Shown here: one piece after another, positions 1,371 to 51,109 of the stretch
How the letters are laid out: every line of letters starts with the position of its first letter
Position numbering within the stretch: the first letter of the stretch is position 1
NCBI GenBank assembly: GCA_018857735.1
Contig: JABMCL010000767.1
Span: 40,001 to 104,000 of the forward strand
Direction: 5' to 3'
Origin: Alviniconcha marisindica
Taxonomy: Eukaryota; Mollusca; Gastropoda; Provannidae
Length of the DNA stretch: 64,000 nucleotides
Program-made: the position numbers and the translations under genes
The notes under the pieces: model-generated
Database searches by the model: none
Told to the model about the DNA's origin: nothing
The model's input: the letters and a program-made list of their open reading frames with translations, nothing else

Positions 1371-1612
1371 AGGCGGACGTTGAGGACCTGGCCAAGCCGG
1401 AGTTTGAGGGGCTGTGGGAGCAGCACAAGCCCTACAAGGTCCCCAAGGACATGTCCAGTGCCAAGCCGCCTGGCGCCAGCAAGATGGACAAGGAGATCCT
1501 GCAGAGGACGCTGGAGAAGCACCGCGAGGGCATTGTCGTCAAGCAGGTGGCCGCCGGCAAAGAGTTCAGCGGATGCCCGTTCTACAGCAAGCCCGACATC
1601 ATCCATTTCAAG
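1371..1612 (+). CDS. CFAP74: CFAP74 exon 1 of window (residues 1-80)
   Basis: The acceptor is cccctgacag|AG and the donor is TTCAAG|gtcagtg. The exon begins with two bases completing a Glu codon and ends in phase 0. It encodes [20 protein letters not shown], a lysine-rich stretch and then [12 protein letters not shown], the start of an ASH-like domain. It is GC-rich and codon-like, in sharp contrast to the flanking arrays. The start could shift two bases because the acceptor reads agag, but only this choice keeps the local frame. Earlier exons are outside the window. Confidence 0.87.

Positions 1613-51109: not shown

What the first reader, a model, noticed from the sequence alone, without database searches (positions are those of the whole stretch)
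1371..51109. Minisatellites in this gene repeatedly copy exon-intron junctions
At least nine intronic arrays have a unit that contains a splice junction of the exon they touch. Donor type: 10325-11600 (exon 11), 13073-14375 (exon 13), 29962-30425 (exon 21), 32685-33035 (exon 23), 36025-37010 (exon 26). Acceptor type: 6841-7497 (exon 8), 11765-12425 (exon 12), 18970-20043 (exon 16), 27640-28073 (exon 19). A single coincidence would be dull; nine in one gene suggest that tandem duplication starts preferentially at exon edges, or that junction-containing arrays survive best because one copy always splices. Inference: such arrays buffer splice sites by redundancy and may be a way introns grow in this lineage.
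Basis: partly seen in the sequence, partly recalled or inferred. Interest (0 to 1): 0.88.

Follow-up and report, generated by a model that had tools for sequence, protein, structure and literature searches.

The report
Snail gene minisatellites spanning splice junctions
In a sea-snail gene for a sperm-tail and cilium protein, several blocks of repeated DNA have copied the borders between coding and non-coding sequence, but they do so about as often as chance predicts in so repeat-filled a gene, so the pattern is real and useful rather than a sign of a special mechanism.

Summary
The gene is CFAP74 of a caenogastropod snail (closest listed relative: Littorina saxatilis, 85%). Its last 30 exons form one open frame. 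Of the nine arrays listed, five clearly repeat a unit holding exon and intron sequence (exons 12, 13, 16, 19, 23); exons 11 and 26 are weaker; exon 21 shares three exon bases; the exon 8 consensus unit has no AG. Further junction duplications turned up at exon 2, at an upstream exon and in a kinesin gene. The proposed meaning is not supported. Introns are 68% tandem repeat. If every array began as one randomly placed duplication, about 8 of 55 minisatellites should cross a junction; 7-8 do. Stricter cuts give 3-7 expected against 5-7 seen. If ancestral introns were twice as long an excess appears (P 0.015-0.115), so up to about threefold bias is not excluded. Array ends do lie near acceptors more often than the null. 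Redundancy would not buffer splicing: outside exon 13, 71 of 80 duplicate sites break the frame. Best reading: junctions are tolerated ground for minisatellite birth because the exon-side site remains. The striking residue is 36 identical donor copies at one exon, a natural test of splice-site choice.

The parts
1371..51109 (+). CFAP74, last 30 exons (1371-1612, 2281-2399, 3072-3138, 4238-4327, 4927-5050, 5972-6021, 6497-6623, 7500-7655, 8397-8587, 9182-9303, 10196-10324, 12426-12513, 12923-13096, 14975-15108, 15740-15918, 20044-20144, 20835-20990, 26772-26935, 28074-28199, 29062-29227, 29845-29964, 31331-31486, 32594-32723, 33434-33499, 34512-34600, 35850-35979, 37420-37553, 47755-47823, 49413-49478, 51011-51109)
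   Evidence: the end of exon 20 is the least certain
2187..2312 (+).
6863..7499 (+). 22-bp array running up to the exon 8 acceptor; consensus unit has TTGCAC, no AG in junction register
10317..11609 (+). 40-bp array at the exon 11 donor; 7-8 exon nt in the unit; 29 downstream GGTCAGTTT copies
11763..12442 (+). 56-bp array at the exon 12 acceptor; unit holds CTGCAG plus 17 exon nt; 10 upstream duplicate acceptors counted
13072..14374 (+). 36-bp array at the exon 13 donor; unit = 24 exon nt (coding FGFVGLPE) + 12 intron nt; 36 copies found with CAGAG|GTCAGT
18972..20061 (+). 32-bp array at the exon 16 acceptor; unit holds TGACAG plus 18 exon nt
27652..28118 (+). 94-bp array at the exon 19 acceptor; 45 exon nt in the unit; the first two copies have lost the AG
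29962..30419 (+). 52-bp array starting at the exon 21 donor; only 3 exon nt, most copies GTAATT
32682..33035 (+). 52/51-bp array at the exon 23 donor; 42 exon nt + 10 intron nt per unit; 6 duplicate donors, each out of frame
35966..36995 (+). 40-bp array at the exon 26 donor; diverged junction copy at 36082-36119 of 35966-36003 (14 exon nt)

Best explanation
Ordinary minisatellite birth in a genome very rich in tandem repeats. A short tandem duplication lands at random. If it lies wholly inside an exon it is removed by selection. If it lies in an intron, or crosses a splice junction, it is tolerated, because the splice site next to the exon body is still there. The extra copies then expand on the intron side and drift free of coding constraint. 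Shown: the anatomy, the exon as source (conserved coding sequence), two-copy cases at exon 2, at an upstream exon and in a kinesin gene, the base rates, and the loss of frame if most copies were used. Inferred: that the two-copy cases are the starting state, slippage or unequal exchange as the expansion step, and use of the exon-side site by exon definition.
For: Spanning arrays 7 of 55 by TRF with 8.0 expected, 8 with exon 26 added by hand and 7.7 expected. Introns 67.7% tandem repeat; exons 5.6%, all 209 bases at exon edges. Sampled stretches of the same assembly average 39% tandem repeat (18 of 20 stretches, two contigs). Exon centres not copied: scores 11-22 in 24 tests, 0 of 23 at 34 or more. 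Exon-edge and interior rates equal at kinesin loci by one of two criteria (4 of 52, 31 of 398). Exon 13 copies vary most at codon position 2 (5, 16, 12 changes), not the pattern of coding constraint. Exon 19 keeps the conserved IGS where copies read VGP.
Against: With ancestral introns twice as long, P for an excess is 0.015 to 0.115 over five thresholds. At the natural setting the strictest cut gives 6 seen against 3.3 expected (P 0.10), and one search's strictest 5 against 2.9 (P 0.16). Array ends lie near acceptors more than the null predicts. The strict-score kinesin comparison leans to edges (3 of 52 against 10 of 398). No RNA was available, so which copy splices is not shown.
Confidence: 0.75

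Rival explanations
1. Tandem duplication starts preferentially at exon edges, or edge duplications are positively retained.
For: Array ends within 10 nt of acceptors 7 against 1.45 expected, within 30 nt of either end 15 against 7.6; excess of spanning arrays if ancestral introns were twice as long; 6 of 58 exon edges with strong copies.
Against: Counts fit the random-founding null at the natural setting; intron ends not more repetitive than interiors (24 of 58 against 62 of 120); kinesin edges 4 of 52 against 31 of 398 interior.
Confidence: 0.15
2. The copies buffer the splice site by redundancy.
For: Copies carry sites scoring at least as well as the real one: 35 at exon 13, 6 at exon 23, 9 at exon 12, 7 at exon 16.
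Against: Single units of 40, 56, 32, 94 and 52 bp shift the frame; 71 of 80 duplicates outside exon 13 do not give the full frame. At exon 11 no copy, at exon 21 three and at exon 26 two reach the real site's score; most are weaker. Motifs not preferentially conserved overall.
Confidence: 0.05
3. The exon 13 array is used as alternative donors and makes a variable-length 12-residue repeat in the protein. Compatible with the best explanation for the other arrays.
For: 36-bp unit, phase 0; 25 of 35 downstream donors keep the full frame; 36 copies keep CAGAG|GTCAGT.
Against: Six orthologues have no insert here; variation by codon position is not that of coding DNA; motif invariance is not unusual for the unit (rank 0.22).
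Confidence: 0.1
4. Artefact of wrong exon boundaries or misassembly.
For: No RNA; some arrays have degenerate stretches that could be read errors.
Against: One open frame over 30 exons and orthologue alignment; a two-copy case in an unrelated gene.
Confidence: 0.03

Closest known systems
Human IFI6 (6-16) minisatellite providing multiple splice donors (Turri et al. 1995; I saw the title in two reference lists, and a one-sentence description in PMC4526556; the paper itself is not held)
   Same: A minisatellite whose repeat units serve as donor sites.
   Different: There two downstream repeat units are reported as used, giving three mRNAs; here use is unknown. Here several arrays of different sequence, donor and acceptor types, lie in one gene.
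Internal tandem repeats at human exon-intron boundaries (De Grassi and Ciccarelli 2009, authors recalled, PMC2812944; passages seen)
   Same: Tandem repeats at exon-intron boundaries that can change introns and splicing.
   Different: That work concerns recent human segmental duplicates and formation of novel introns; here the repeats lie in introns whose age was not tested.
Intron gain by tandem duplication of an AGGT segment (PMC3443670, passages; Drosophila cases PMC2891723, passages; Zhuo et al. 2007 seen in a reference list only)
   Same: Tandem duplication copying a splice-competent sequence; exon 16 units carry CAG|GTGAGA, which could act either way.
   Different: No new intron is shown; duplication crosses an existing junction.
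Direct repeats of 4-30 bp near intron borders in 213 introns (Rogers and Bendich 2025, PMC11782384; abstract only)
   Same: Repeats at intron borders.
   Different: Short paired repeats read as insertion scars, not arrays of a junction-containing unit.

Membership tests
CFAP74 | Sequence homology over the encoded region | tested here: met
   9ijj_C, E printed as 0; P0001 Littorina saxatilis 85% identity, 100% of query covered
CFAP74 | Specific Pfam Ig-like domains of CFAP74 | tested here: inconclusive
   Scanned on the orthologue P0001 only, not on the window's own protein: CFAP74 domains 1 to 4 at E 2.8e-36 to 1.1e-57
Minisatellite spanning a splice junction | Unit of about 10-100 bp containing exon and intron sequence in junction order | tested here: met
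   Exons 12, 13, 16, 19, 23; exon 26 diverged, exon 11 with 7-8 exon nt
Minisatellite spanning a splice junction | Same feature, arrays at exons 8 and 21 | tested here: not met
   Exon 8 consensus unit lacks AG; exon 21 shares 3 exon nt
IFI6-type functional multiple-donor minisatellite | Inner repeat copies used as splice sites in mRNA | not testable with these tools
   No RNA data
Intron gain by tandem duplication | Intron absent at this position in relatives | not tested
   I obtained proteins but no genomic DNA of relatives

The most novel reading that the evidence does not exclude
In this snail lineage splice-junction duplication is effectively neutral genome-wide: introns carry arrays of up to 36 splice sites nearly identical over the whole repeat unit, and the spliceosome still takes the one touching the exon body. 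That would make the genome a natural experiment on exon definition, and tandem duplication across junctions a steady way for introns to lengthen without changing the protein.
Probability: 0.4. Interest if true: 0.62.

Novelty: new member of a known kind. Interest (0 to 1): 0.42.

Why it matters
How the spliceosome chooses among equal nearby sites is often studied with engineered duplications (recalled, not looked up). Here nature offers many copies with nearly the same local sequence, so position relative to the exon must decide. The work also gives a base-rate rule for repeat-rich genomes: several junction-spanning arrays in one gene need no special cause.

Tried and rejected
Coding use of the exon 13 array: disfavoured by codon-position variation. 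Selection keeping or killing the copies' splice motifs: no overall trend (exons 11, 13, 23 lean to conservation, 19 and 21 the other way). Array ends near acceptors as a real edge effect: seen, not in the different test; left open, TG-rich tracts near acceptors may lengthen TRF calls. RNA families and tRNAs: none found. Literature on mollusc introns and minisatellites: the listings (25 of 1,858 papers shown; 1 paper; none) showed nothing on this; further listings. Passages of PMC4039745 and PMC12783039 concern intronic minisatellites; those I saw did not describe junction copies. Exon 15 acceptor: score 28 against a control maximum of 26, too weak to claim. In one search the exon 12 acceptors were off by one base and the exon 11 pattern was loose; corrected, which is the one to use. 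In one search the query proteins were alignment rows with gaps; one search failed on a wrong option; one search is the valid run. The kinesin loci were picked because their exons lie close together, so they are biased to short, repeat-poor introns (TRF 0-9%). In one search the observed counts (8, 7, 7, 6, 6) were set by hand; the third counts exon 11 on 8 aligned exon bases. An earlier count said no gap at any junction; that is wrong for exon 27/28.

Full report
WHAT THE GENE IS. The exons join into one frame with no internal stop: 1,252 codons, 1,254 after exon 20 was lengthened. The product matches CFAP74 of the ciliary axoneme (9ijj_C, E printed as 0). Among the 120 proteins listed of 750 hits the closest is Littorina saxatilis CFAP74 (85%), so the window is most likely from a caenogastropod snail. 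In an alignment with six gastropod orthologues the exons follow one another closely. Two junctions show gaps: exon 20/21 (2 residues, removed by ending exon 20 at 29227) and exon 27/28, where three of six orthologues have 4-9 extra residues. The window lies at C233:40001-104000 of an 818 Mb assembly.

WHAT THE ARRAYS ARE. TRF covers 67.7% of 45,975 intronic bases and 5.6% (209) of 3,764 exonic bases. I tested 58 exon edges by aligning their outer 40 exon bases to the adjacent intron and to 26-27 non-neighbouring introns. Six edges score 34 or more where controls reach at most 24: exon 23 donor, 13 donor, 19 acceptor, 2 acceptor, 16 acceptor, 12 acceptor. Twelve exon centres tested against both flanks scored 11-22. 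Of the other four listed arrays, exon 26 has a diverged copy crossing the junction, exon 11 shares 7-8 exon bases, exon 21 shares three, and the exon 8 consensus unit has no AG.

IS THE NUMBER SURPRISING? Arrays were collapsed to one unit each and the founding unit placed uniformly over every position touching the intron. Of 55 minisatellites, 8.0 should cross a junction and 7 do by TRF; requiring 3, 8 or 15 bases on each side, 7.2, 5.2 and 2.9 are expected and 6, 5 and 5 seen (P 0.76, 0.61, 0.16). With units for exons 11 and 16 reduced to 40 and 32 bp and exon 26 added by hand, 7.7 are expected and 8 seen; with 14 exon and 5 intron bases 4.2 and 6 (P 0.23); with 14 and 10, 3.3 and 6 (P 0.10). 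The result depends on ancestral intron length: halved, 11.5 expected against 8; doubled, 4.7 against 8 (P 0.088), and the stricter cuts give P 0.115, 0.042, 0.039 and 0.015. So no bias is needed, and a bias up to about threefold is not excluded. The exon 20 microsatellite and the two-copy exon 2 case are outside these counts.

INDEPENDENT CHECKS. A TRF-free test of intron ends found a copy in the own intron, better than in any other intron, for 11 of 29 donor sides and 13 of 29 acceptor sides, against 62 of 120 interior positions (interior sample without intron 27). A placement simulation found array ends within 10 nt of acceptors more often than expected (7 against 1.45, P 0.0007; donors 0 against 1.40), and within 30 nt of either end 15 against 7.6 (P 0.007). 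Elsewhere in the genome: at five kinesin loci (26 of the 124 matches), 3 of 52 exon edges scored 34 or more and 4 of 52 beat controls by more than 3; interior intron probes gave 10 of 398 and 31 of 398. Inspected by eye, one is a plain two-copy acceptor duplication (L037 near 243: 52-bp unit with 19 exon bases), one carries a TGTGTACAG-plus-exon-start copy some 390 bp upstream (L037 near 2498), one looks like a duplicated exon (L033), and the weak fourth is not convincing. An upstream exon of CFAP74 itself also has an acceptor duplication.

HOW IT WORKS. Conserved coding sequence inside the units shows that the exon is the source. Nearly all exon 12 copies carry the W codon that among the seven proteins compared occurs in this species only; three of six inner exon 23 copies keep its species-specific H codon and three have lost one base there. 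This suggests that these arrays were founded, or converted, after this lineage split from the relatives sampled (inference). If an inner copy were used, 81 of 115 duplicates would break the frame; outside exon 13, 71 of 80 (sites found by fixed motifs). Redundancy therefore does not protect the message. Exon 13 is the exception: 25 of 35 alternatives keep the frame. Arrays hold 389 of 445 intronic sites scoring at least as well as the gene's mean real site, many in arrays not at a junction, such as 113 acceptor-like sites in intron 17 (matrices built from only 29 and 30 sites). That the exon-side copy is used is inferred from orthologue sequence, not shown.

CONCLUSION. A real, recurrent and mostly expected by-product of minisatellites in a genome where sampled sequence is about 39% tandem repeat (18 of 20 stretches from two contigs, four next to the window; one mostly masked stretch at 85% and one fully masked were left out). 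The closest precedent is the IFI6 donor minisatellite. What deserves a look is not the number of arrays but the choice among near-identical sites.

Noticed in passing
C233 of the window assembly, about 32,502-32,716 (outside the window, upstream): Acceptor-junction duplication at another CFAP74 exon, about 54 exon bases copied 110 bp upstream.
   Followed up: partly
L037 near 243 and near 2498: Two junction-containing duplications at a kinesin locus whose introns are poor in TRF arrays.
   Followed up: partly
window 21726-25524 (intron 17): 3.8-kb array of a 34-bp unit; 113 acceptor-like sites counted in the arrays of this intron, not at a junction.
   Followed up: partly
window 48420-49409 (intron 28): 91-bp array with TTTCCATCCCTCAG in most units (by eye), ending 3 bases before the exon 29 acceptor; the exon edge has no copy in it above controls.
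   Followed up: partly
window 29221-29528: A TG microsatellite begins at or inside the end of exon 20, where most relatives aligned have E and this gene would have G if exon 20 ends at 29227; that donor is the weakest by the gene's own matrix.
   Followed up: partly
gene against 3' flank: 52 of 70 gene arrays have more T than A and 47 of 70 more G than C on the coding strand, against 9 and 6 of 19 in the 3' flank; a link with transcription is possible.
   Followed up: no
L013-L032: Sampled 10-kb stretches of this assembly average 39% tandem repeat (range 4-78% in the 18 used), far from uniform.
   Followed up: partly
window 49740-50060: SINE-like sequence with a tRNA-like end, by eye only; ARAGORN and Rfam reported nothing in the window.
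   Followed up: no
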